Below, piece after piece: positions 1 to 18,111 of a stretch of 33,113 nucleotides of DNA. Under the pieces are notes generated by a model that did no database searches, had not been told where the DNA came from, and saw nothing but the letters and a program-made list of their open reading frames with translations. How positions within the stretch are numbered: the stretch's first letter is position 1; the number at the start of each line of letters is the position of its first letter. The position numbers and the translations under genes were made by a program. Source of the stretch: a virus; the IMG/VR virus record IMGVR_UViG_3300046467_001390, positions 1 through 33,113 of that record. The stretch is one strand, 5' to 3'.

Positions 1-192
1 CCACTCAAGGTGCATTATTTCTAAAGCTCTAAGGTATCGTTTTAAAGCAACATCTTCTTTTTCTTCCAAATCTTCTTTTTTTTCTCTATGCATTGGTATA
101 AAATGCTCTCTTTCTATTTCAAGAATTCTCTTTACCATCTTCTCTCTCATCTTTTGTAGTAATTGAGCCTTCCTCAAATAAGTTTCATTCAT
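1..192 (-). CDS. Hypothetical charged protein, 3' end outside window
   Basis: Open for 64 codons from an ATG at 192 to the left edge without a stop, so the C-terminus is missing. The start overlaps the stop of the upstream VWA gene as ATGA (189-192), the same coupling used along this operon. The visible part is highly charged, rich in Lys, Glu and Arg, with long helical and probably coiled-coil stretches (for example REKKEDLEEKEDVALKRY). I recognise no family. Confidence 0.7.
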   Translation of the reverse strand, partial: MNETYLRKAQLLQKMREKMVKRILEIEREHFIPMHREKKEDLEEKEDVALKRYLRALEIMHLEW

Positions 193-1934
193 ATACTATC
201 TACAACGACTCCTTTAAATTGTTTTATAACCTTTTCGGACACCTGATCTATGTTATCCACAACTATTACACGCTTTTTTCCAAACGTTTTATACACGTCC
301 TGCCTTTCCCAAGGAGCAGGATATCCTACTAAAATACAACACACATTTGGACATACTTTTAATAATCTTCTGAGTCTCTTTTTACAAATATTACTATAGT
401 GTTTTCTTTGAAGTCTAGATCCATTCACATAATAGTTTGGTACACCATCGGTTATAATAAATGTTATTTTCTTTGAACCATTCATTTCTTTCATTTGTTT
501 CTCGGAATACTCAAATGCCATATGTGTAGGTGTTATGTGATATTTAGTGTCTATTGCTATTTTGGATATGTCGTTCATACCATTTATTTCAGTCATAGCT
601 ATTGTGCCTTGAGTGTTGGCTGACCAAACATTTCCTCGTATTTTAACGTTTTTTAATGAATCTACGGATTTAAACATGGTTGCAACAAGATTTCGTGATG
701 TACGTATTTTGTAACCATTCATAGATGTTGAAGCATCTATTGAAACTATTATTGATGCACCTGTTTGTTTCTTCCCATTTATTTTACATTTGTTTATTTG
801 TGTTCCAATTATCTTTCTTTTAACATATTCCTCAACATCTAGTTCTTCTCCTTCAAAATCAATTATTGGTTTTTGGTTCATTTTTATTTTCTCAAATACT
901 CTTTTAAGTCCATTAACTGTTTTTAAATCAGCTTCTATCTTCACATCATTCCCACAAAATCTATCTATCATAGTGACAGATGATGGTGTTCGGTCTATTA
1001 CACCGTCACCATCACCTAACATCTTTTGTCGAATCTCGCTGGAGAGTTGTTTGCCTTTCTTCTTACCTTCACTAATAAGCTCGTCAATTGTAATATTTGA
1101 TACAGATATATCTTTTTCAGTACTTTGAAGAATGTTTTCTAAATCTTTAGGTATCTCATTCATATCATAGATATCATGGCGTGACACCCTCTTTTTTTCT
1201 TTACAATACTCTTTAAATGTTTTTCCCATACTATGCAAAGAAGATTCATCTGATACACGAATTTGGTTTTTAGTAAGATAAACCTTTATTAATGGTGCTA
1301 GTGATATAAGAACCCTTAATGCACCATAAGGATCAGTCCCTTGTACATCTTCCAATGCTTTCTTACATTGTTTGAATATTTTTTGGTCTTTTACTAAATC
1401 TTCCCTAAAGAATCTTATAGCCAACAACACAAACAGTGGATTATCTTCTCCATGACCTTCTCCATCACCTATACCTTTGCCTAAAGATACGAGTGTTTTT
1501 TCAAAACGTTTTCTGTAGTCAATATAATATTTTGTTAAATGGGACTCTATTCTTTGGTCTTCCAAAACATTCCATATACTATGAACCACCATTCTGTTAT
1601 AACCATTCCCAAAGAACTTACTTAGATTGAATTTTTTTCCACTCAGCATATCTGAAATTTCACTGAATGGGCTTTTGTATAGAATATGTGATAGTTCATG
1701 TAACAATGCAGTATATTGTCCTATGTTAGGAACTGCTGGTGTTGCTAGATTCACCGTGAAACTTGGGTATATCTTCAAATCCAATTTATTTTGTTTCAAT
1801 CCTTCATATAAACAAAAGTTAGGAGCTTTTCCATATATTATTTTTACTTCTCCATCTATAACGTGTTCTACAATTCTTGACGTTTTAACAAATAATTCTT
1901 TTTCACTTAATATATTGGTGTCTCTTTTAGTCAT
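189..1934 (-). CDS. VWA-domain protein with N-terminal HExxH metallopeptidase-like domain (CobT/NorD type)
   Basis: The 581-residue protein has two parts. The N-terminal half carries HELSH at residues 79-83, an HExxH zinc-peptidase signature, followed by NVLEDQRIE near 122-130, the kind of Asn/Glu-Asp-x-Arg block seen in CobT/NorD-like proteins. The C-terminal third is a von Willebrand A domain with a complete MIDAS set: D400-x-S402-x-S404, a threonine near 470 (TPTHMA) and D496 in ITDGVPN. Such proteins act with a MoxR/CobS-type AAA+ ATPase, and one lies one gene upstream (2182-3069). The likely role is ATP-driven remodelling or metal insertion on an unknown target. Calling it a cobaltochelatase subunit for B12 is not supported, because no cobalamin gene is nearby. 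The HExxH could be structural, so proteolysis is unproved. Confidence 0.8.
   Translation of the reverse strand: MTKRDTNILSEKELFVKTSRIVEHVIDGEVKIIYGKAPNFCLYEGLKQNKLDLKIYPSFTVNLATPAVPNIGQYTALLHELSHILYKSPFSEISDMLSGKKFNLSKFFGNGYNRMVVHSIWNVLEDQRIESHLTKYYIDYRKRFEKTLVSLGKGIGDGEGHGEDNPLFVLLAIRFFREDLVKDQKIFKQCKKALEDVQGTDPYGALRVLISLAPLIKVYLTKNQIRVSDESSLHSMGKTFKEYCKEKKRVSRHDIYDMNEIPKDLENILQSTEKDISVSNITIDELISEGKKKGKQLSSEIRQKMLGDGDGVIDRTPSSVTMIDRFCGNDVKIEADLKTVNGLKRVFEKIKMNQKPIIDFEGEELDVEEYVKRKIIGTQINKCKINGKKQTGASIIVSIDASTSMNGYKIRTSRNLVATMFKSVDSLKNVKIRGNVWSANTQGTIAMTEINGMNDISKIAIDTKYHITPTHMAFEYSEKQMKEMNGSKKITFIITDGVPNYYVNGSRLQRKHYSNICKKRLRRLLKVCPNVCCILVGYPAPWERQDVYKTFGKKRVIVVDNIDQVSEKVIKQFKGVVVDSI
1020..1039. 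repeat. 20-bp repeat, copy 1
   Basis: CATCTTTTGTCGAATCTCGC, identical to 7670-7689 but read in a different frame there, so protein similarity does not explain it. Confidence 0.75.
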
Positions 1935-2182
1935 TCTAGTTTAGCCAACCTCCTTCTTATTGTTCTATTCCTTGCACTTGACGATGGGTGTTGTCTTGCA
2001 CATCCATGACAACAAGGGCATAATACTTTACCACCTAACTTATTTTTTTCAAGTATTGATTTTAGAAAGTATTTATTACAGTTCCTACAAAATGCGTGTC
2101 TGTCATAAACCAATTCCCCTCTACAATGTTTCAATTCATTAGGAAATTCCCTGCAAACTCCACCACATGGGTTTTTACTCAT
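1931..2182 (-). CDS. Small zinc-ribbon protein with HPSSSAR motif
   Basis: This 83-residue protein has CxxC at 32-35 and a dense CPCC..C cluster at 55-61, which would fit one zinc site made from both knuckles. It ends in a basic tail, HPSSSARNRTIRRRL, likely to bind nucleic acid. It sits between the two halves of the MoxR/VWA pair, with a one-base TAATG overlap to the ATPase and an ATGA overlap to the VWA gene. Translation of the three genes is therefore probably coupled, and a functional link is plausible. HPSSSAR recurs in the 261-residue protein at 5684-6469 with identical codons (see findings). Function unknown. Confidence 0.7.
   Translation of the reverse strand: MSKNPCGGVCREFPNELKHCRGELVYDRHAFCRNCNKYFLKSILEKNKLGGKVLCPCCHGCARQHPSSSARNRTIRRRLAKLE
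1971..1991. repeat. 21-bp repeat, copy 1 (HPSSSAR coding)
   Basis: Identical to 5997-6017. It encodes HPSSSAR in the same reading frame of two otherwise unlike proteins. Confidence 0.8.
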
Positions 2183-3069
2183 TATAATACAACCCCAAAC
2201 GTGTCTTTAATTCTTATTCTGATAAGTTCTCTGTCCATTGGTTCTCCATATTTAATGAGAATAACTTCTTCCAATGCAGTTTTAATAGAATGTGTGTTAC
2301 CTTCCTCAACATTGTCTTTAAAATATGTACAGAATTGTACTATATCCCTAATTGACAACGCATATTCAACATCACCCTTCATTCTTAGAGCATAGATATC
2401 TTGAACAAGAACCAAAAGTGGCATCTTTACTGTGTCAGATGGGATTCCTTCCCAATCTATTACTTTTTCCAAATCAGCATTACTTGGATAGTTCCATACC
2501 CTTCCTACAAATCTAGAACGTAAGTCCTCTGTCATTGTGTTTATACCAGCATATGTAACAGGGTTTATAGTCCAGATTATAGTTAGTTTACAATCTTCTT
2601 TCAACCTATATGTTTTGCCATTTGCAACTATTGATCTTCTTCCATCACAAATTCTATTCCAATACCGTTGCATATCATGTTCTTGTGCATTGGCTTCATC
2701 ACCGTATAAAACAGCGTGTCCGAAATGGTTTGCAACACAAATTGCTTTTGGTAATAATCCTAGGCTAAAGAATGTTCCATCAGAGTTTATTTCCTTTGTT
2801 CCAATTAAATCACTCTTTTTAATTCCAGCCCCTATTGGTTCTTCTATTAATGCAACTTTCAACTTTTTACATAATGTATGAACCAAAAGTGTTTTTCCTT
2901 GACCTTTTTCAGATTCTATCAGGTATGGATATTTAGATGAAATAATAGCTTTTTCTAATCTTTCAGCTTCATCTGATATCTGTATATATGTGTCCCACAC
3001 CTCTATGTTCTTTGGGTCGTATTGATCAAAGTCTATAGATGTTGTAGGAATGGTTATTTCTTTGTTCAT
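2182..3069 (-). CDS. MoxR/CobS-type AAA+ ATPase
   Basis: The 295-residue protein has a P-loop ESEKGQGKT at 52-60, Walker B LYGDE at 121-125, a sensor-1 asparagine in TINP near 169, and an arginine-finger-like LRSRF at 183-187. Spacing and length match the MoxR/CobS/NorQ branch of AAA+ proteins. These form hexameric rings that work with VWA-domain partners, and the partner is encoded at 189-1934. CobS-like ATPases have been described in tailed viruses of marine Thaumarchaeota, which supports the host guess (recalled, not checked). A protein-remodelling role in infection or virion maturation is as likely as a cobalamin role. It starts in an ATGA overlap with the methyltransferase gene. Confidence 0.88.
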   Translation of the reverse strand: MNKEITIPTTSIDFDQYDPKNIEVWDTYIQISDEAERLEKAIISSKYPYLIESEKGQGKTLLVHTLCKKLKVALIEEPIGAGIKKSDLIGTKEINSDGTFFSLGLLPKAICVANHFGHAVLYGDEANAQEHDMQRYWNRICDGRRSIVANGKTYRLKEDCKLTIIWTINPVTYAGINTMTEDLRSRFVGRVWNYPSNADLEKVIDWEGIPSDTVKMPLLVLVQDIYALRMKGDVEYALSIRDIVQFCTYFKDNVEEGNTHSIKTALEEVILIKYGEPMDRELIRIRIKDTFGVVL

Positions 3070-6638: not shown

Positions 6639-6696
6639 CTTCATCATCCTCATTAAAATCTTTCCTTCTACAAGGAATCCATATTATTTTACTCAT
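6631..6696 (-). CDS. Very small 21-aa ORF
   Basis: It fills the gap between 6638 and 6689 exactly. Its start overlaps the previous stop as ATGAGTAA and its stop overlaps the next start as ATGAATAA. The protein is a short hydrophobic/basic head (MSKIIWIPCRRKDF) and an acidic tail. Two matching 8-nt overlaps argue for translation, but 21 codons is at the limit of what can be supported. Confidence 0.42.
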   Translation of the reverse strand: MSKIIWIPCRRKDFNEDDEDE

Positions 6697-7015
6697 CTTC
6701 ATTTTCTCTCCATCTCCAATAATTCCATTTCTTAGCTGTTCCATCCATTATTCTGTTTCCTATTTTGTCCATAGTGTGACCTTTCTCTATCATTTCATAG
6801 ATAAATTGAGAATATTCTGTGTTAAAACCAGATGTTTTTAAACAATCTGTTACACCTATTCTGCCTAAGTTAGACAATCCTAAATGTGGGTCATGTGTTG
6901 CAGCCCAAGCTGAAACATACCCCATCTCTTCTGATAATGCTAGATAAGGACAACCACAAGACCAGATTTTATTTTCTGCTCTTTCCAATGTTTCACATAA
7001 TTCTCTTTCGTTCAT
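6689..7015 (-). CDS. Hypothetical 108-aa protein
   Basis: Helical protein with CGC near residues 20-22 and a well-mixed, natural composition (WSCGCPYLALSEEMGYVSAW; later FIYEMIEKGHTMDKIGNRIM). ATGA overlap with the 249-residue gene upstream. No family recognised. Confidence 0.65.
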   Translation of the reverse strand: MNERELCETLERAENKIWSCGCPYLALSEEMGYVSAWAATHDPHLGLSNLGRIGVTDCLKTSGFNTEYSQFIYEMIEKGHTMDKIGNRIMDGTAKKWNYWRWRENEDE

Positions 7016-7761
7016 TCTAATTCATCTCCTAATAGTGTTGACAGTGAATATTTCATTTTGTTACTATTTGGAACTTTATTACTTAGATGGTAAGTTGTTA
7101 TATCATACGCACCATCATTAACAACACCATATTCTTCAACGTATCTTTTTGATACAACATCTGCATCATCTATGAAATTATTAATCTTTTTAAGATGTAA
7201 TGCCAATTTTCCAAAATCTAACAAAACACCATCTCTTAATTCCACTGTGTCAGTGAAGTAGGCGTATAATGCTTGTGATATATGCGTGACAGGTGGTAGT
7301 GGGTCTCTTATTGTAGTTGATTCGTTAACGACTAATTGTACTACATTAAAGTCCATTCCCATGTTTCTACATAGACTATACATACTCCACTTTGGAAGAG
7401 AGTTATTCTCTATATTCCATTTTGTAATATAGCCACTTTCTAAACCAAACGCTGTATATGGCTCTGCACTGAATCCTATTGTCTCGAACATTTTTATTAA
7501 AGTTTCTGGATAGTGGTGTATTTTATGATCCCATCTTTTTTGAATACATTTCTCAGCCACATTTCTTTTGTTTTTATAAGTTCCCTTGTAGTTGAGGGAC
7601 AATAATTTTTCATCTATTCTTCTGTTTAGAAGACTAATGAATTTTTGATTATAGTTCATACCTTGCTCCCATCTTTTGTCGAATCTCGCAAATAACGGTG
7701 TGTTTCCATTTCGTCTGGCTGTTTGAAAGCTTCTTCGTGCTACTCTTCGTCTTGCAGGCAT
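7012..7761 (-). CDS. Hypothetical 249-aa basic protein
   Basis: It lies just downstream of the amidotransferase/amidoligase pair, two bases after the amidotransferase stop. The N-terminus is extremely basic (MPARRRVARRSFQTARR), like a nucleic-acid-binding or disordered tail. The rest is mixed alpha/beta with no catalytic motif I can name. It could be a partner or substrate of the neighbouring enzymes, but nothing in the sequence proves this. Confidence 0.68.
   Translation of the reverse strand: MPARRRVARRSFQTARRNGNTPLFARFDKRWEQGMNYNQKFISLLNRRIDEKLLSLNYKGTYKNKRNVAEKCIQKRWDHKIHHYPETLIKMFETIGFSAEPYTAFGLESGYITKWNIENNSLPKWSMYSLCRNMGMDFNVVQLVVNESTTIRDPLPPVTHISQALYAYFTDTVELRDGVLLDFGKLALHLKKINNFIDDADVVSKRYVEEYGVVNDGAYDITTYHLSNKVPNSNKMKYSLSTLLGDELE
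7670..7689. repeat. 20-bp repeat, copy 2
   Basis: Second copy of 1020-1039, inside the 249-residue gene. Confidence 0.75.
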
Positions 7762-7763
7762 TT

Positions 7764-8747
7764 TTAATCAAATCCATCTCCAAGAAAATCTTCAGCCCAC
7801 TCATGCCACTGACCATCATCCCCTATGAAACCTGTTCCACCTTCGTTTCCAAAGCCTTTATTTTTTGCAAGAAAATCCTCATAACTGTACTTTGCATTAT
7901 AAATTGCTTCGTAATCTTCAGGTGAACCAGCAAATGTATTAGTGTCGTCCAAGGTATCTTTTGTTAATGTAATCTCTTCTCCCTCTTTTTCGGTTTGCTT
8001 CCTTTTTGTTTCGCTTGATTTGTCGTTTTGAGAGGTGTCCGTTATCTGGGTTTGGACACAGCCCCGAAAATCCTGTCGTCCTCCACCACCACGTAGGTAA
8101 GTTGTTACATTATTACCACTACTAACTACTGTAGTGCCATGAGTATTGTTGCTCCCCCAACTCCTAGGACTGTGTTTCCAATGTGTGTTTGAACACTGTG
8201 CCTTCTCTTCTGTTGACCAACCTTTACCAAATCTCTTTATTCCTTGTGGTGTTAATACAGATACTTTCTCATCAATCAATGCAAGATAATTAGTACCCAA
8301 ATGTCTAATTAACCATGCCATGATTCTACTATCTGAAAATCCACCATCAGGTAATTTGGTTTCTTTATCGTTTAATAATACTTTCATTGCAACTGAATTC
8401 CAATCTGACCAGATTCCGTTATGGAATAATACACCTTCTGTATCATATCCTGCTGAATCCAAATCTTCACTGTTTTCAGCACTTATAGCAAATGGATGGC
8501 ATAATTCATTATTAACCCCACCATGAGTAGCAATTCTAAAGTGAACTACAATTGGTAATTGAATATTCTCTCTTTCGATTGTTTCCATTATGAATTTTGA
8601 TGTTACGTGCATACCTTTCTCCCATCTTACTATGCTTTTTGCTTGGTCTATCCATGCAAAACCACCACCATCTTTATTCATTGATTCTGCTGAATCCAAC
8701 ATATCCTTCTTAGGATAATCGTCTTCAAACATCATTATTACACACAT
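7764..8747 (-). CDS. Class II glutamine amidotransferase (Ntn-hydrolase fold)
   Basis: Cysteine is residue 2, exposed as the N-terminal nucleophile after Met removal, as in all class II glutaminases. RIATHGG at 71-77, CHPF at 83-86 and LFHNGIW at 107-113 are the expected glutamine-binding and oxyanion-region motifs. The catalytic domain ends near residue 175. A polar linker of about 100 residues follows, rich in Gly, Ser, Thr and Asn, and then an acidic C-terminal segment (EDYEAIYNAKYSYEDFL). The enzyme releases ammonia from glutamine for a partner enzyme. The gene directly upstream encodes an amidoligase, so the pair probably makes an amide or peptide-like bond with channelled ammonia. Such pairs are known from comparative genomics of amidoligases, but the target here is unknown. 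Confidence 0.85.
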   Translation of the reverse strand: MCVIMMFEDDYPKKDMLDSAESMNKDGGGFAWIDQAKSIVRWEKGMHVTSKFIMETIERENIQLPIVVHFRIATHGGVNNELCHPFAISAENSEDLDSAGYDTEGVLFHNGIWSDWNSVAMKVLLNDKETKLPDGGFSDSRIMAWLIRHLGTNYLALIDEKVSVLTPQGIKRFGKGWSTEEKAQCSNTHWKHSPRSWGSNNTHGTTVVSSGNNVTTYLRGGGGRQDFRGCVQTQITDTSQNDKSSETKRKQTEKEGEEITLTKDTLDDTNTFAGSPEDYEAIYNAKYSYEDFLAKNKGFGNEGGTGFIGDDGQWHEWAEDFLGDGFD

Positions 8748-8750
8748 ATC

Positions 8751-9728
8751 TTAAATCTCCCCTAATTTTGGAAATATCGGTTTTATTCTTCCACTCATAT
8801 CTCTAAATGCTTCTATTTCTTCTGGTTTACCATTATCAAATATTTTTATTATTTGCTGTTGTATTTCATTACAAAGAAATCTAACACATTTCATATATAG
8901 TTTTGAATCTTTAAACATTGGTAACAATCTAACTTCCATTGTTTGGTGTCTTTGCCATGAAAAGTTAAACTGTGTATATCTATCTGCTCTAGCATATACT
9001 TGATTATCTGCATTATGAGAATTTGCACAATATTGTATGCCATTCAACCTTCTTTCGGCTTCCTGCATTTCAGAAAGTTTCATATTAGTTTTAATCCATT
9101 TTTTGAATTCCCTTTTCACTCCTAACCAAACACGTCTATCCATTGCTATTCCATAAAAGGTATTACTCTTAAAGCTTAAATGGAAATGACCACCACAACT
9201 TGCATTAACATTTGTTGGATAGTTATCCATAATCAATTCTTTCATCACTCTTAAATCTTCATAGTACACAATTGGTTTTGTTACATATTCTCCAGTTATT
9301 TGTGAACTATCTGTACAGTCACCCTCACAACAGTCATATCCATCTTCGTCACAACTACAGTCTCCTCTACAACAACTACACGAACGTGATCTGGAAAAGT
9401 GTACAGAACCATCGTCATGATATGCTAATTGCTGTTCTTCATGAATACGAGTTCTATTATCAAGTGGTGCTCTTGCCCATTGTCCTTCCATCTCTATTCC
9501 TATTTTTTTGATGATTGGACTATCTCCTGCATTATCATATCCTATATGTGTGGTAAAACCTACATTAAGGTTCATAAGATTTGGAGAATTTTCTGTCAGA
9601 ACTCTTACTCCACATTCTAGACAGTGTTTCACTTTCAAAGTGTCAGGTTCAAATACACTCAAACATTTTTTACAGTAAAGCTGTTTGCTTCGTTTAAACA
9701 ATGGTGCGTTTTTCATTTTTACGGTCAA
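8751..9728 (-). CDS. Amidoligase-family protein (COOH-NH2 ligase, glutamine-synthetase-like fold) with zinc ribbon and Cys-cluster insert
   Basis: The 325-residue protein has the amidoligase motif series: GIEMEG at 77-82, DDGSVH at 105-110, GEYVTKPI at 146-153, CGGHFHLSF at 178-186 and TMEVRLLPMF at 263-272. These supply the ATP/Mg and substrate residues in that family. Two additions are unusual: an N-terminal four-Cys zinc ribbon (C19, C22, C36, C39) and a cluster of eight Cys at 117-138 inserted between DDGSVH and GEYVTKPI. The family joins carboxyl groups to amines using ATP, and the ammonia-supplying class II amidotransferase is the next gene. The TTG at 9728 gives a TTGA overlap; the ATG at 9716 is the alternative start. 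Confidence 0.82.
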   Translation of the reverse strand: MTVKMKNAPLFKRSKQLYCKKCLSVFEPDTLKVKHCLECGVRVLTENSPNLMNLNVGFTTHIGYDNAGDSPIIKKIGIEMEGQWARAPLDNRTRIHEEQQLAYHDDGSVHFSRSRSCSCCRGDCSCDEDGYDCCEGDCTDSSQITGEYVTKPIVYYEDLRVMKELIMDNYPTNVNASCGGHFHLSFKSNTFYGIAMDRRVWLGVKREFKKWIKTNMKLSEMQEAERRLNGIQYCANSHNADNQVYARADRYTQFNFSWQRHQTMEVRLLPMFKDSKLYMKCVRFLCNEIQQQIIKIFDNGKPEEIEAFRDMSGRIKPIFPKLGEI

Positions 9729-10423
9729 ATCTCTAAATCTCCTTGGTCATCGTGGTCTGGTTCCATGTATTTTCCGTATGTTGTCCATGTGTTTTTTTCG
9801 TCGTCCATCTTACCAAACATATCCTTTGATTTAACAATATCCTTTGATTTTTGTTTTAGTTTGAAACCTTGTGTTCTCTGAGATAAGAAATTATCATTCA
9901 ACCATACAAGGTATCTTTGTGTTGCGTAAAATACAGCGTCAAACATTCTATTAGATACAGGCGATGAGAAGCTAATCATAACTCCTTCATCTAATATATT
10001 ACTTAATATGTATGAAATATTTGGTGTTCCATTCCAAGCTGTTGTGTCAGAAGTAGTTTCTAATTGTAGATTAGGTGAATCTAATAATATATTTGCGTTC
10101 CAATTTCTAAATGCAACTTCAAGTGTTTTTGGTACGTAATCATCAGGTTTTTTATAATTAACTGCTGATCTTAAATCATCAAACATTCTATCTGTCCACA
10201 ATCTTCCTATGTTATAAGAATCCATAGTAACTCCCCATCCTTTATTAAACTCTGAAACTGTGTCTTTACTCAAAGCCTTGAAGAAATCATGAAATTCTTT
10301 AGATTTACAATATAGTTGAAATCCAATAGGTGTTCTTGCCATTCTTAATGTTAAGACAACGCTTTCATCATCTTCATTCTTAATGTAGAATGTTCTTAAT
10401 TTTGGTGCTTTTAATTCGGTCAT
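9725..10423 (-). CDS. Hypothetical 232-aa protein upstream of the amidoligase
   Basis: Globular-looking protein with alternating hydrophobic strands (SVVLTLRMARTPIGFQLYC) and an acidic, His/Asp-rich C-terminal tail (PDHDDQGDLE). No family recognised. It is coupled to the amidoligase by a TTGA overlap and begins with an ATG at 10423 after a 36-bp gap, so it may be the first gene of a sub-operon with the amidoligase and amidotransferase. A functional link is possible. Confidence 0.68.
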   Translation of the reverse strand: MTELKAPKLRTFYIKNEDDESVVLTLRMARTPIGFQLYCKSKEFHDFFKALSKDTVSEFNKGWGVTMDSYNIGRLWTDRMFDDLRSAVNYKKPDDYVPKTLEVAFRNWNANILLDSPNLQLETTSDTTAWNGTPNISYILSNILDEGVMISFSSPVSNRMFDAVFYATQRYLVWLNDNFLSQRTQGFKLKQKSKDIVKSKDMFGKMDDEKNTWTTYGKYMEPDHDDQGDLEI

Positions 10424-14734: not shown

Positions 14735-16687
14735 ATGGGACTAAGAGACACATTTAAGAGTGCATTTAGGTTTACTAATAAATCGTACACAGAGACAACT
14801 ACAAGACCTTCGATAGCACAGCCATATATGAGTACCGATACAGGTGCTAAATTACCAATTTTCCCATTCCCACTCATAATGATTTATGAGTTAGCAGATA
14901 ATATTGATGCACTTAGAATACCTATTGAGACAATTAACAGAGAGATGTTTAAGAATGGTTTTGAAGTAACTGAAAAATACAAATACAAATGTAATAACTG
15001 TGCAAAGGAATTCCAGTATGAACCTCTTGCAAGTGATAGACCAGATGATCAACCATTTGAAACTAATAACGACTCACACGTTGGACACCCACGAAAGAAG
15101 AAAGCACTTGTTTTAAAAGAAGACAAAGCTGTACCTGATGGTGTAATGTGTGATACTTGTGGTTCTACTGATTTGAAAAGACCAAGACCTGAAAACCGTA
15201 AGATATTGGAAGATATGTTAGCAGACCCAATTAACGGAAACGGACAAACATTGGAAGATGTTGCAAGACAATTAGAACGTGATTTAGAAATTAGTGATAA
15301 CGCATACCTCTTAGCACTTAAGAACTATTACATTGATGATACAACAGGTAAGATAGATCATGAGAAAACAATTATAAAAGAGTACCTAAGAATTGATCCA
15401 CCACAGGTGGCAATGATAGCTGATAGTGACGGTAGAATAGGTTTTGATGATAAACGTAATAAATTATATGTTTGCCCAAGATTTGAACATAGGGATAAAC
15501 GACTTACAACAAACAAGTGTGACCGTTGTGGTGCTGAAGCATTAAAAGCTGTTATGGAAGTTAACTCTGTATATTCTATAGGTATTCCACAACCAAAACG
15601 TGTAGTTTATGGTGAAGGAGAAGTAATTTGGAAGGCTGGAAAATATAGACCACACCTACTTTATGGATTCTCACCAATTTATTCAGTATGGTCAAAGGCA
15701 ATGTCCTTATCACATATGGATGAATTTATTAGAAAATACTTTGATAAGATGAGACCACCAAGAGGATTATTGGTAGTTGCTTCTCGTAACTATGAAACGT
15801 TTAGAAAGTCTTGGGACACATTAACACAGAGAGCAGCAGAAGATCCATACATGATTCACCCATTAATGGTAGAATCAGAGAAAGGTGGTTCTAACATGGC
15901 ACAGTGGTTAGACTTTACAGGTTCTTTGAAAGAGCTAGAGTTCATAGAGATAAGAAAAGAACTTAGAATGATTATAGGAGCTGTATATGGTGTGTTACCA
16001 TTCTATTATGGAGAAACCCCTGCTGGTTGGTCACAAGAAGGATTACAGGTTACAATCACAAATAGAGCAGTAAAATGGGGTCAAGATATATTAGAAAAGT
16101 CTTTCTTTAGAAAAATTGCTGGACATTTACAAGTTGATGATTGGAAATTACAATTAAAGGCTGGTGAAGAAACAGATAAGTTAAGAGACTTGCAAACTGA
16201 TGGTGTTGAAATACAAAACATGGCAATGCTACAACAAATGGGATTTGAAATAACAAGAACACACACAGGTGAGTTTAAAGTAAGTAAAGACAGTCAAATA
16301 ACAGGTGAAGCCTTAGCAATGATGGGTACTGGTATGGGTGGTGTTAATGGTAGAGGAGATATGATGGGTCAACAGAGTGAAAATGCAACTAATTTCCAAG
16401 GTGAACCAAAGAATAATAGACCAAGTGATATTGGTGGAACAGGTCAAGGATCACCATCTAGTGGAAGTGGTACAAGTATGAGTAAGAAAAGTGATTACCC
16501 AGATGGAATAACACCTAGAAACTATGAAGTTATCAAAAAAACATTACAAACAGCAGTTGATTTTCAGTGGAAGAAAACAAAAACTGTAGATGAGTTAAGA
16601 AAGTATGGTATGACAGTAAGACAGGCAAGAGATTTAGTTAAAACTGAATTTTCAGGAATGAGGGGATGGGAAGAAGATGAAGGATAA
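14735..16687 (+). CDS. Portal protein
   Basis: At 650 residues, in the usual place before protease and capsid genes, it shows the portal pattern. There is an N-terminal clip/wing region, a long central part with FIRKYFDKMRPPRGLLVV, the motif VYGVLPFYYGETPAGWSQEG near residue 430, and a helical C-terminus with a Gly/Met/Ser-rich tail. It forms the dodecameric DNA gate of the head. Two insertions are unusual: a four-Cys zinc ribbon (C86, C89, C139, C142) separated by a charged loop, and a second site (C247, C262, C265 with H252). Zinc ribbons may stabilise the wing. The terminase that docks to it is not in the window. Confidence 0.9.
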   Translation: MGLRDTFKSAFRFTNKSYTETTTRPSIAQPYMSTDTGAKLPIFPFPLIMIYELADNIDALRIPIETINREMFKNGFEVTEKYKYKCNNCAKEFQYEPLASDRPDDQPFETNNDSHVGHPRKKKALVLKEDKAVPDGVMCDTCGSTDLKRPRPENRKILEDMLADPINGNGQTLEDVARQLERDLEISDNAYLLALKNYYIDDTTGKIDHEKTIIKEYLRIDPPQVAMIADSDGRIGFDDKRNKLYVCPRFEHRDKRLTTNKCDRCGAEALKAVMEVNSVYSIGIPQPKRVVYGEGEVIWKAGKYRPHLLYGFSPIYSVWSKAMSLSHMDEFIRKYFDKMRPPRGLLVVASRNYETFRKSWDTLTQRAAEDPYMIHPLMVESEKGGSNMAQWLDFTGSLKELEFIEIRKELRMIIGAVYGVLPFYYGETPAGWSQEGLQVTITNRAVKWGQDILEKSFFRKIAGHLQVDDWKLQLKAGEETDKLRDLQTDGVEIQNMAMLQQMGFEITRTHTGEFKVSKDSQITGEALAMMGTGMGGVNGRGDMMGQQSENATNFQGEPKNNRPSDIGGTGQGSPSSGSGTSMSKKSDYPDGITPRNYEVIKKTLQTAVDFQWKKTKTVDELRKYGMTVRQARDLVKTEFSGMRGWEEDEG

Positions 16688-17538: not shown

Positions 17539-17678
17539 AACTTTGCTCCACAATTCTTACACGTTGAGTAGCCTTTAGAGTGACCATCATTTTTACCCCA
17601 AGTCCACTTAAACCCAGATTTTTTTTTACATTTTGGGCAAGACTCTACTGGATAATTTCCACTACCCCAATCACTCAT
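17535..17678 (-). CDS. Hypothetical 47-aa zinc-ribbon protein
   Basis: It begins MSDWGSGNYPVESCPKC and ends with CKNCGAKF. Two CxxC pairs about 22 residues apart with an aromatic, Lys-rich middle are typical of a short zinc ribbon. The start overlaps the upstream stop as ATGAGTGA. Confidence 0.6.
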   Translation of the reverse strand: MSDWGSGNYPVESCPKCKKKSGFKWTWGKNDGHSKGYSTCKNCGAKF

Positions 17679-18111
17679 TCTTTTCCACCAAAATTAGATT
17701 TATACGATCAAATATTAAATCATAATATCTTTTTGTATAGTCTATATTTATTTTTCTTTTTGTTGTGTCACCATAAAATCTATCAACACGTAGCTCTAGT
17801 TCTGGTTTTCTTAAAAATCTTGGAATTATTTCCAATTTTGTTTTTCTATTATTGAATTTTAAACTACAATAATGAACAAGTTTTTCTGTACCATCTTCAT
17901 ATTTTCCCAATGACCCATTTCTAAAGTGTACTAGTGACTTTGTTAACTCTGGTCTTTCTTTTAGTTTACTTGTTTCTGTAACAATAAGTAATTTTTTGTC
18001 TTTTACAAATAAATCAATTAGAAATGATTCTCTTGTTGGGTCGTTTCTAACACCCTTGTAAATTTTGTTATAGTCTTTTATAGTTTCGTAAATGTATATA
18101 GAACTTGCCAT
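17671..18111 (-). CDS. Hypothetical 146-aa protein heading a minus-strand island
   Basis: Basic alpha/beta protein (ESFLIDLFVKDKKLLIVTET; KINIDYTKRYYDLIFDRINLIL). The pattern of short hydrophobic strands and Lys/Arg loops is nuclease-like in feel, but I see no definite catalytic set. The ATG at 18111 lies about 24 nt from the TATA-like element at 18130-18139, read leftward. It heads a three-gene unit running against the late genes, like a moron insertion. Confidence 0.65.
   Translation of the reverse strand: MASSIYIYETIKDYNKIYKGVRNDPTRESFLIDLFVKDKKLLIVTETSKLKERPELTKSLVHFRNGSLGKYEDGTEKLVHYCSLKFNNRKTKLEIIPRFLRKPELELRVDRFYGDTTKRKINIDYTKRYYDLIFDRINLILVEKNE

What the first reader, a model, noticed from the sequence alone, without database searches (positions are those of the whole stretch)
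7764..10423. Amidoligase plus class II amidotransferase module in an archaeal tailed virus
The sequence shows an amidoligase motif series directly upstream of an N-terminal-Cys glutamine amidotransferase. From established knowledge, such pairs form amide bonds using glutamine-derived ammonia, and comparative genomics predicted them to modify peptides, cell surfaces or small molecules. In a virus of archaea, which lack peptidoglycan, the target is open: host S-layer, a host protein tail, or the virus's own protein. The gene before (232 aa) and the gene after (249 aa, Arg-rich N-terminus) are unknown and could be partner or substrate.
Basis: partly seen in the sequence, partly recalled or inferred. 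Interest (0 to 1): 0.75.

Follow-up and report, generated by a model that had tools for sequence, protein, structure and literature searches.

The report
Amide-bond enzyme module in archaeal virus
A marine virus of ammonia-oxidising archaea carries a tightly linked pair of enzymes (an amide-bond-forming ligase and a glutamine-splitting partner), a set known from bacterial phages where it was guessed to alter the bacterial cell wall, but these hosts have no such wall, so its real target must be something else and is still unknown.

Summary
On the minus strand, 9728-8751 encodes a divergent Amidoligase_2 (GS-like carboxylate-amine ligase) and 8747-7764 a class II glutamine amidotransferase with an intact catalytic set. 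The window ligase misses Pfam by itself. Relatives match PF12224 (28/47, best 4e-28), profiles without the window and its closest homologues find it, and its AlphaFold model matches phage 'amidoligase' folds (E 1e-7). The two genes sit together, same strand, in 120 of 134 GATase loci from viruses and bacteria, usually adjacent or overlapping.

The virus is archaeal by kinship: relatives encode AmoC, MCM and RadA, so the host is an ammonia-oxidising Nitrososphaeria. In this lineage the module also has a 232-aa upstream protein (probably fused to the ligase in some viruses), a 108-aa protein downstream of the GATase, and in most near-complete relatives a gamma-glutamyl cyclotransferase. Related viruses without the pair lack all of these. 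The 249-aa gene is not conserved.

Amidoligase + GATase + cyclotransferase is a known bacterial-phage cassette, proposed (untested, as far as found) to modify peptidoglycan. These hosts lack peptidoglycan, so that reading cannot be general. Best reading: a cytoplasmic gamma-glutamyl/amide-forming system of unknown substrate. New variant of a known kind.

The parts
8751..9728 (-). Amidoligase_2-type (GS-fold) carboxylate-amine ligase, 325 aa, TTG start overlapping the upstream stop; N-terminal CxxC...CxxC zinc-ribbon-like segment and a Cys-rich acidic insert (about residues 116-139)
7764..8747 (-). Class II (N-terminal Cys) glutamine amidotransferase, 327 aa; C2, R71, H84-P85, H109-N110-G111 and D139 conserved; poorly conserved C-terminal third
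9725..10423 (-). 232-aa module partner of unknown fold; homologues lie next to the pair, and a similar domain is probably fused to the ligase in other viruses
6689..7015 (-). 108-aa protein conserved downstream of the GATase in 12 related loci; no known family
7012..7761 (-). 249-aa protein, Arg-rich N-terminus, in the operon but lineage-specific (one weak homologue, in L146); no known family

Best explanation
The five-gene minus-strand operon 10423-6689 encodes a virus-made amide-bond system working in the host cytoplasm. The ligase (GS fold) uses ATP/Mg2+ to activate a carboxylate, most plausibly a glutamate gamma-carboxyl or a carboxyl on a small molecule or peptide. The class II GATase, with its N-terminal Cys as nucleophile, splits glutamine and hands over ammonia (or a gamma-glutamyl group) so that an amide forms. 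p232 is an accessory or substrate-recruiting subunit of the ligase. In related viruses a GGACT-type gamma-glutamyl cyclotransferase trims or reverses gamma-glutamyl amides. The substrate is not peptidoglycan and is probably intracellular. SHOWN by sequence and structure comparison: enzyme families, intact catalytic residues, tight pairing, host group by kinship, co-inheritance with GGACT, p232 and p108. INFERRED: chemistry, ammonia transfer, role of p232, cytoplasmic location. UNKNOWN: the substrate.
For: Ligase. GATase. Pair linkage over very divergent viruses and bacteria; Marvin gp105/gp106 and OM43-phage MEP402 gp06/gp07 have the same pair. Order is shuffled but linkage kept (232-AMI-GAT here; AMI-232-GAT in G007; 232-GAT-AMI in G012/G014). 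GGACT is far above its Pfam cut-off in 12 pair-bearing records and in none of four pair-less relatives. Full set 232-AMI-GAT-108-GGACT on one strand in L146 and L170. Ammonia-oxidising archaeal host. That archaea of this group have no peptidoglycan is established knowledge.
Against: No activity is shown for any member here. The GATase could feed another acceptor or act as a gamma-glutamyl hydrolase. GGACT is absent from the window itself (a fragment of a roughly 60-kb genome) and from Marvin and MEP402. Archaeal-virus members that hit PF12224 do so only weakly. A profile made only of clear PF12224 bacterial-type members does not reach the window directly (no archaeal-virus member better than E 0.28; hhalign 66%), so the family link runs through intermediates.
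Confidence: 0.62

Rival explanations
1. Host-surface modification: the module amidates or cross-links an S-layer or surface glycoprotein or lipid precursor of the archaeal host and blocks superinfection, the archaeal counterpart of the proposal for phiEco32-like phages.
For: Published proposal for bacterial phages with the same genes (PMC5498523; PMC10580990); superinfection exclusion is a plausible benefit.
Against: The same pair occurs in viruses of hosts with unrelated envelopes (AOA host), so a shared surface substrate is unlikely. Neither enzyme shows an N-terminal hydrophobic segment by reading, and the GATase needs a processed N-terminal Cys, pointing to the cytoplasm. I found no experimental test of the bacterial proposal.
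Confidence: 0.15
2. Nucleic-acid or nucleotide modification: the pair adds an amide or amino-acid group to a viral base or nucleotide precursor to escape restriction.
For: The module lies in the minus-strand block with the AAA/VWA pair and a D12 methyltransferase; DNA is a target shared by viruses of all hosts; class II GATases serve nucleotide pathways (general knowledge).
Against: No glycosylase, thymidylate-synthase-like, hydroxymethylase or deazaguanine gene was seen in the window or in the scanned proteins of relatives; known phage hypermodification pathways, as recalled, do not use Amidoligase_2.
Confidence: 0.12
3. Modification of a viral protein or peptide (for example p232, p108 or the lineage-specific 249-aa protein as substrate), giving a tagged or cross-linked virion or effector protein.
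For: p232 and p108 are inherited only with the pair; Amidoligase_2 enzymes were predicted to modify peptides (Iyer et al. 2009, cited in PMC10580990).
Against: p232 is absent or unrecognisable next to the pair in many relatives and probably fused to the ligase in some, which fits a subunit better than a substrate; it was not recognised next to the bacterial-type pairs.
Confidence: 0.11

Closest known systems
Amidoligase + GATase + gamma-glutamyl cyclotransferase (+ ATP-grasp, + second amidoligase) cassette of phiEco32-, PaP3/LUZ24-, PA11-, PSA-HP1-type podophages (PMC5498523, PMC6209634)
   Same: Amidoligase, glutamine amidotransferase and gamma-glutamyl cyclotransferase carried together in a tailed virus
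   Different: Host is an archaeon without peptidoglycan; no ATP-grasp_4 gene and no second amidoligase found; two additional genes (p232, p108)
Amidoligase (PF12224) + GATase (PF13522) pair of OM43 phages MEP401/402 (PMC10580990) and mycobacteriophage Marvin gp105-gp106
   Same: Ligase directly upstream of GATase; same motif sets; Pfam matches similarly weak
   Different: Bacterial hosts; no GGACT in the same records
Verrucomicrobiota genomic pairs (Prosthecobacter, Chthoniobacter, Akkermansiaceae)
   Same: Adjacent same-strand amidoligase and GATase; ligase clearly over the PF12224 cut-off
   Different: On bacterial contigs, prophage status not tested; distant sequences
Marine Thaumarchaeota tailed viruses with amoC (Ahlgren et al. 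2019, cited in PMC8115048)
   Same: Relatives of the window encode AmoC, MCM, RadA and tailed-virus structural genes
   Different: No mention of an amidoligase/GATase module found in the papers searched; the original paper is not in the library
Haloarchaeal viruses phiCh1 and ChaoS9 (class II GATase, PMC8651126, PMC6471424)
   Same: Class II GATase (GATase_6 E 4e-5 to 6e-5) next to a 357-aa same-strand protein with GMEVEQ, SHVHL and TIELR motifs
   Different: No profile evidence that the neighbour is an amidoligase; motif resemblance only

Membership tests
Amidoligase_2 (PF12224), GS-like COOH-NH2 ligases | Direct Pfam match over the curated cut-off | tested here: not met
   No hit for the window protein; 5/11 archaeal-virus relatives hit, best E 9e-4
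Amidoligase_2 (PF12224), GS-like COOH-NH2 ligases | Homology to proteins that do pass the Pfam cut-off | tested here: met
   28/47 members of the alignment hit PF12224 at E<=0.01, best 4.2e-28; a profile of members outside the archaeal-virus set finds the window at 2e-17. A bacterial-type-only profile alone does not
Amidoligase_2 (PF12224), GS-like COOH-NH2 ligases | Conserved metal/ATP-site residue series (GxExE, DxS, E of ExxS, HxH, R..N..TxExR) | tested here: met
   E79 E81 D106 S108 E147 H181 R227 N255 E265 R267 invariant in 47 sequences
Amidoligase_2 (PF12224), GS-like COOH-NH2 ligases | GS-superfamily fold | tested here: met
   BFVD hits to phage amidoligases at 1e-7; top PDB hits are GS, YbdK, GCL and PafA-type enzymes but weak (best 4e-3)
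Amidoligase_2 (PF12224), GS-like COOH-NH2 ligases | ATP-dependent amide formation | not testable with these tools
   needs biochemistry
Class II glutamine amidotransferase (GATase_4/GATase_6) | Profile match | tested here: inconclusive
   E 0.0016 and 0.026, below the curated cut-off; 7/11 relatives match; tblastn to phage GATases from residue 1, best about 5e-6
Class II glutamine amidotransferase (GATase_4/GATase_6) | N-terminal Cys nucleophile and Arg, HNG, Asp active-site motifs | tested here: met
   C2, HFRIATHG 69-76, LCHPF 82-86, FHNG 108-111, SDS 138-140; C2 H69 R71 H84 P85 H109 N110 G111 D139 invariant in A2
phiEco32/PSA-HP1-type amidoligase cassette | Gamma-glutamyl cyclotransferase with the pair | tested here: inconclusive
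   Absent from the 33-kb window; present over the Pfam cut-off in 12 pair-bearing related records and 0 of 4 pair-less relatives
phiEco32/PSA-HP1-type amidoligase cassette | ATP-grasp enzyme and second amidoligase | tested here: not met
   No PF13535 hit in 8 module records, no ATP-grasp family among 48 scanned proteins, one amidoligase per record; other ATP-grasp families were not searched one by one, and the window is a fragment
Tailed viruses of ammonia-oxidising archaea | Tailed-virus hallmark genes plus AOA host genes | tested here: met
   Portal, MCP and tail-tube matches; relatives with portal 67-90% identical; AmoC, MCM, Rad51/RadA and terminase in relatives. AmoC itself is not in the window

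The most novel reading that the evidence does not exclude
Tailed viruses of both bacteria and archaea share a mobile gamma-glutamyl amide module (ligase + GATase + cyclotransferase, here with two archaeal-virus subunits p232 and p108) that acts on a common intracellular molecule, for example a counter-defence signal, a nucleotide or a peptide tag, and not on the cell envelope as has been assumed since 2009.
Probability: 0.3. Interest if true: 0.75.

Novelty: new variant of a known kind. Interest (0 to 1): 0.5.

Why it matters
The cassette was explained for bacterial phages as peptidoglycan modification against superinfection, and later papers repeat that. Finding the same pair, with the same cyclotransferase, in viruses of archaea without peptidoglycan shows the explanation cannot be general and narrows the search to targets shared by bacteria and archaea. 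It also names two new partner genes, one probably fused to the ligase in some viruses, which makes the substrate question experimentally approachable.

Tried and rejected
Searches of the ligase against annotated phages, IMG/VR by single-protein patterns and profile searches of the PDB sequences found nothing. Artefact: rejected (ribosome-binding sites, conservation down to 25-30% protein identity, adjacency in 116 pairs). Single weak profile hits (AntA, Mad3_BUB1, phrog_2668) rejected as noise. The p232 structure model (pLDDT 63.5) gave no significant fold match. p108 and p249 match no Pfam family. Placing the phiCh1/ChaoS9 neighbour gene as an amidoligase by profile failed. No Nitrososphaeria genome was reached as a handle, so whether hosts carry their own amidoligase was not tested. 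The AAA + VWA pair (2182-3069, 189-1934) was considered as part of the module and rejected: it is present in pair-less relatives too. An ATP-grasp partner was looked for and not found. Co-occurrence counts are not independent: on the portal tree the pair-bearing records fall on one side of a branch (one change, support 88/87; the weakly resolved MCP tree does not recover this), so presence/absence in this family may be one event.

Full report
WHAT IS THERE. The window is a 33,113-base virus record, a fragment: no terminase was found, while near-complete relatives are about 55-65 kb. Structural genes run on the plus strand from the portal at 14735. The finding lies in the minus-strand block. 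Reading on the minus strand: 232 aa (10423-9725), ligase 325 aa (9728-8751), GATase 327 aa (8747-7764), 249 aa (7761-7012), 108 aa (7015-6689). Genes abut or overlap by a few bases and most have Shine-Dalgarno-like sequences, including AAGGAG before the TTG start of the ligase, which overlaps the stop of the 232-aa gene.

THE LIGASE. The window protein by itself gets no Amidoligase_2 match in Pfam and no tblastn match in 50,697 annotated phage records. Relatives settle it. In 50 records related by portal, 11 carry a homologue; aligned, they share the series GxExEG, DxS, E of GExVS, HxH and R..N..TxExR. Five of 11 match PF12224 with best E 9e-4, and of 47 wider relatives 28 match, best 4.2e-28; ten bacterial/verrucomicrobial-type members are all over the curated cut-off. 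Ten residues are invariant over the 47. Profiles without the window find it: 5e-44 leaving out it and its two closest relatives, 2e-17 with only members outside the archaeal-virus set, against 6.1 bits for the best of 2000 shuffles. A profile of those bacterial-type members alone does not reach it directly, and hhalign gives 66%, so this is a divergent branch joined by intermediates. The AlphaFold2 model (pLDDT 79) has 35 viral fold matches below 1e-3, most of the named ones 'Amidoligase enzyme', and the first 27 PDB matches are glutamine synthetase, YbdK, glutathione synthesis enzymes, glutamate-cysteine ligase or PafA, though weak.

THE GATASE. GATase_4 and GATase_6 match weakly, each also in 7 of 11 relatives. 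tblastn from residue 1 finds phage GATases. The active-site series MC, HFRIATHG, LCHPF, FHNG and SDS is intact and largely invariant. By established knowledge of the GlmS/PurF class these are the nucleophile, the glutamine-binding Arg, the oxyanion-hole Asn-Gly and the Asp.

THE PAIR IS TIGHT. The same 11 of 50 related records carry both genes and none carries one. With profiles, 9 of 13 mapped records have both and 4 have neither; in G027, G028 and G041 the corresponding stretch is present, so the module is accessory in this virus family. Scanning viral and genome collections with the GATase alignment gave 257 viral and 51 genome loci; of 134 loci read, 120 have a ligase ORF, always on the same strand, 116 of 125 under 200 bp away, median overlap 7 bases between open frames. 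Many of the 14 exceptions are at contig ends. Mycobacteriophage Marvin (gp105/gp106) and OM43 phage MEP402 (gp06/gp07) have the same adjacent pair.

THE HOST. Relatives encode AmoC (E 9e-14), MCM (2e-76), Rad51/RadA (3e-52) and a T4-type terminase. With a portal related to haloarchaeal and Methanomassiliicoccales viruses, this places the lineage among tailed viruses of ammonia-oxidising Nitrososphaeria, such as the amoC-bearing Thaumarchaeota viruses cited in PMC8115048. AmoC is not in the window itself; the host call is by kinship.

PARTNERS. Three gene families near or tied to the pair occur only with it. (i) p232: recognisable homologues next to the pair in L145-L149, L153 and L181, with weaker ones in L151, L180, L187. 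In L150, L152, L155, L158 and L160 the ligase has an extra N-terminal stretch of about 200 aa that resembles p232 (hhalign 69%, E 4.5e-5 for one comparison): a probable fusion, not proven. (ii) p108: downstream of the GATase in 12 loci, no family. (iii) A roughly 100-aa GGACT/AIG2 gamma-glutamyl cyclotransferase, 30-58 bits against a cut-off of 22.8, in 12 pair-bearing records and in none of four pair-less relatives. L146 and L170 show 232-ligase-GATase-108-GGACT on one strand within about 6 kb. The 249-aa gene has one weak homologue. Order is shuffled between viruses, which argues for selection on linkage. Presence/absence itself is clustered on the portal tree (one change), so it should not be counted as many events.

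HOW IT MOST LIKELY WORKS. The ligase activates a carboxylate with ATP; the GATase supplies ammonia or a gamma-glutamyl group from glutamine; p232 assists the ligase; GGACT releases or trims gamma-glutamyl amides with 5-oxoproline as product. The families and their residues are shown; the chemistry is inferred from them. Both enzymes look cytoplasmic (no hydrophobic N-terminus by reading; the GATase needs a free N-terminal Cys), and the block is away from the structural genes, which favours an intracellular substrate.

COMPARISON WITH WHAT IS KNOWN. The set amidoligase + GATase + cyclotransferase (with ATP-grasp and a second amidoligase) is described in phiEco32-, PaP3-, PA11-, PSA-HP1-type phages and proposed to change peptidoglycan against superinfection (PMC5498523; PMC10580990; PMC6209634; PMC11318856). 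The source proposal (Iyer et al. 2009) is not in the library and I found no experimental test. Here the host has no peptidoglycan (established knowledge), ATP-grasp_4 and a second amidoligase were not found, and two further genes are present. So it works like the core of that cassette but is a variant, not a full member. No paper found describes the module in AOA viruses, though the library is partial.

VERDICT. Observation confirmed, interpretation supported, target unknown. New variant of a known kind, interest 0.5.

Noticed in passing
8751-9728 (residues about 116-139) and homologues L101, L103, L099, L100: A Cys-rich acidic insert between the DxS and GExVS motifs of the ligase grows from nothing (G007) to over 100 residues with about 20 or more Cys in other archaeal-virus members; metal-binding-like, unexplained. 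Marvin gp105 and MEP402 gp06 also have CxxC segments before the ligase domain.
   Followed up: partly
2182-3069 and 189-1934 (-): MoxR/CobS-like AAA ATPase and VWA (CobT-like) pair, in 11 of the 13 mapped records, independent of the amidoligase module; such pairs were proposed to be cobaltochelatase subunits (PMC8651126).
   Followed up: partly
L119:6993-7556 and equivalents in G035, G042, G046: AmoC (ammonia monooxygenase subunit C) in four relatives of the window; among the 13 mapped records only in a subgroup that has the module.
   Followed up: yes
L277:2819-3892 (ChaoS9_220) and phiCh1 ORF41/42: The gene next to the class II GATase of haloviruses ChaoS9 and phiCh1 has amidoligase-like motifs (GMEVEQ, SHVHL, TIELR) but no profile support; in the older phiCh1 record it is split in two frames. 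A cultured archaeal virus test case if real.
   Followed up: partly
L225-L275: Ligase-GATase pairs on many Verrucomicrobiota contigs (Prosthecobacter, Chthoniobacter, Akkermansiaceae), sometimes two per genome; L265 (labelled Brachyspira) has three ligase-like ORFs around one GATase.
   Followed up: no
17671-18111 (-): A 146-aa minus-strand gene inside the plus-strand structural block, conserved in all 13 mapped records, function unknown.
   Followed up: no
L117:15968-16798 (-): A matrixin-type metalloprotease (HELGHGLGLGH, hydrophobic N-terminus) in relatives, possibly secreted.
   Followed up: no
G001, G014, G035, G046: A Pyr_excise (pyrimidine dimer glycosylase) family protein found only in module-bearing relatives; the association may be by kinship.
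   Followed up: no
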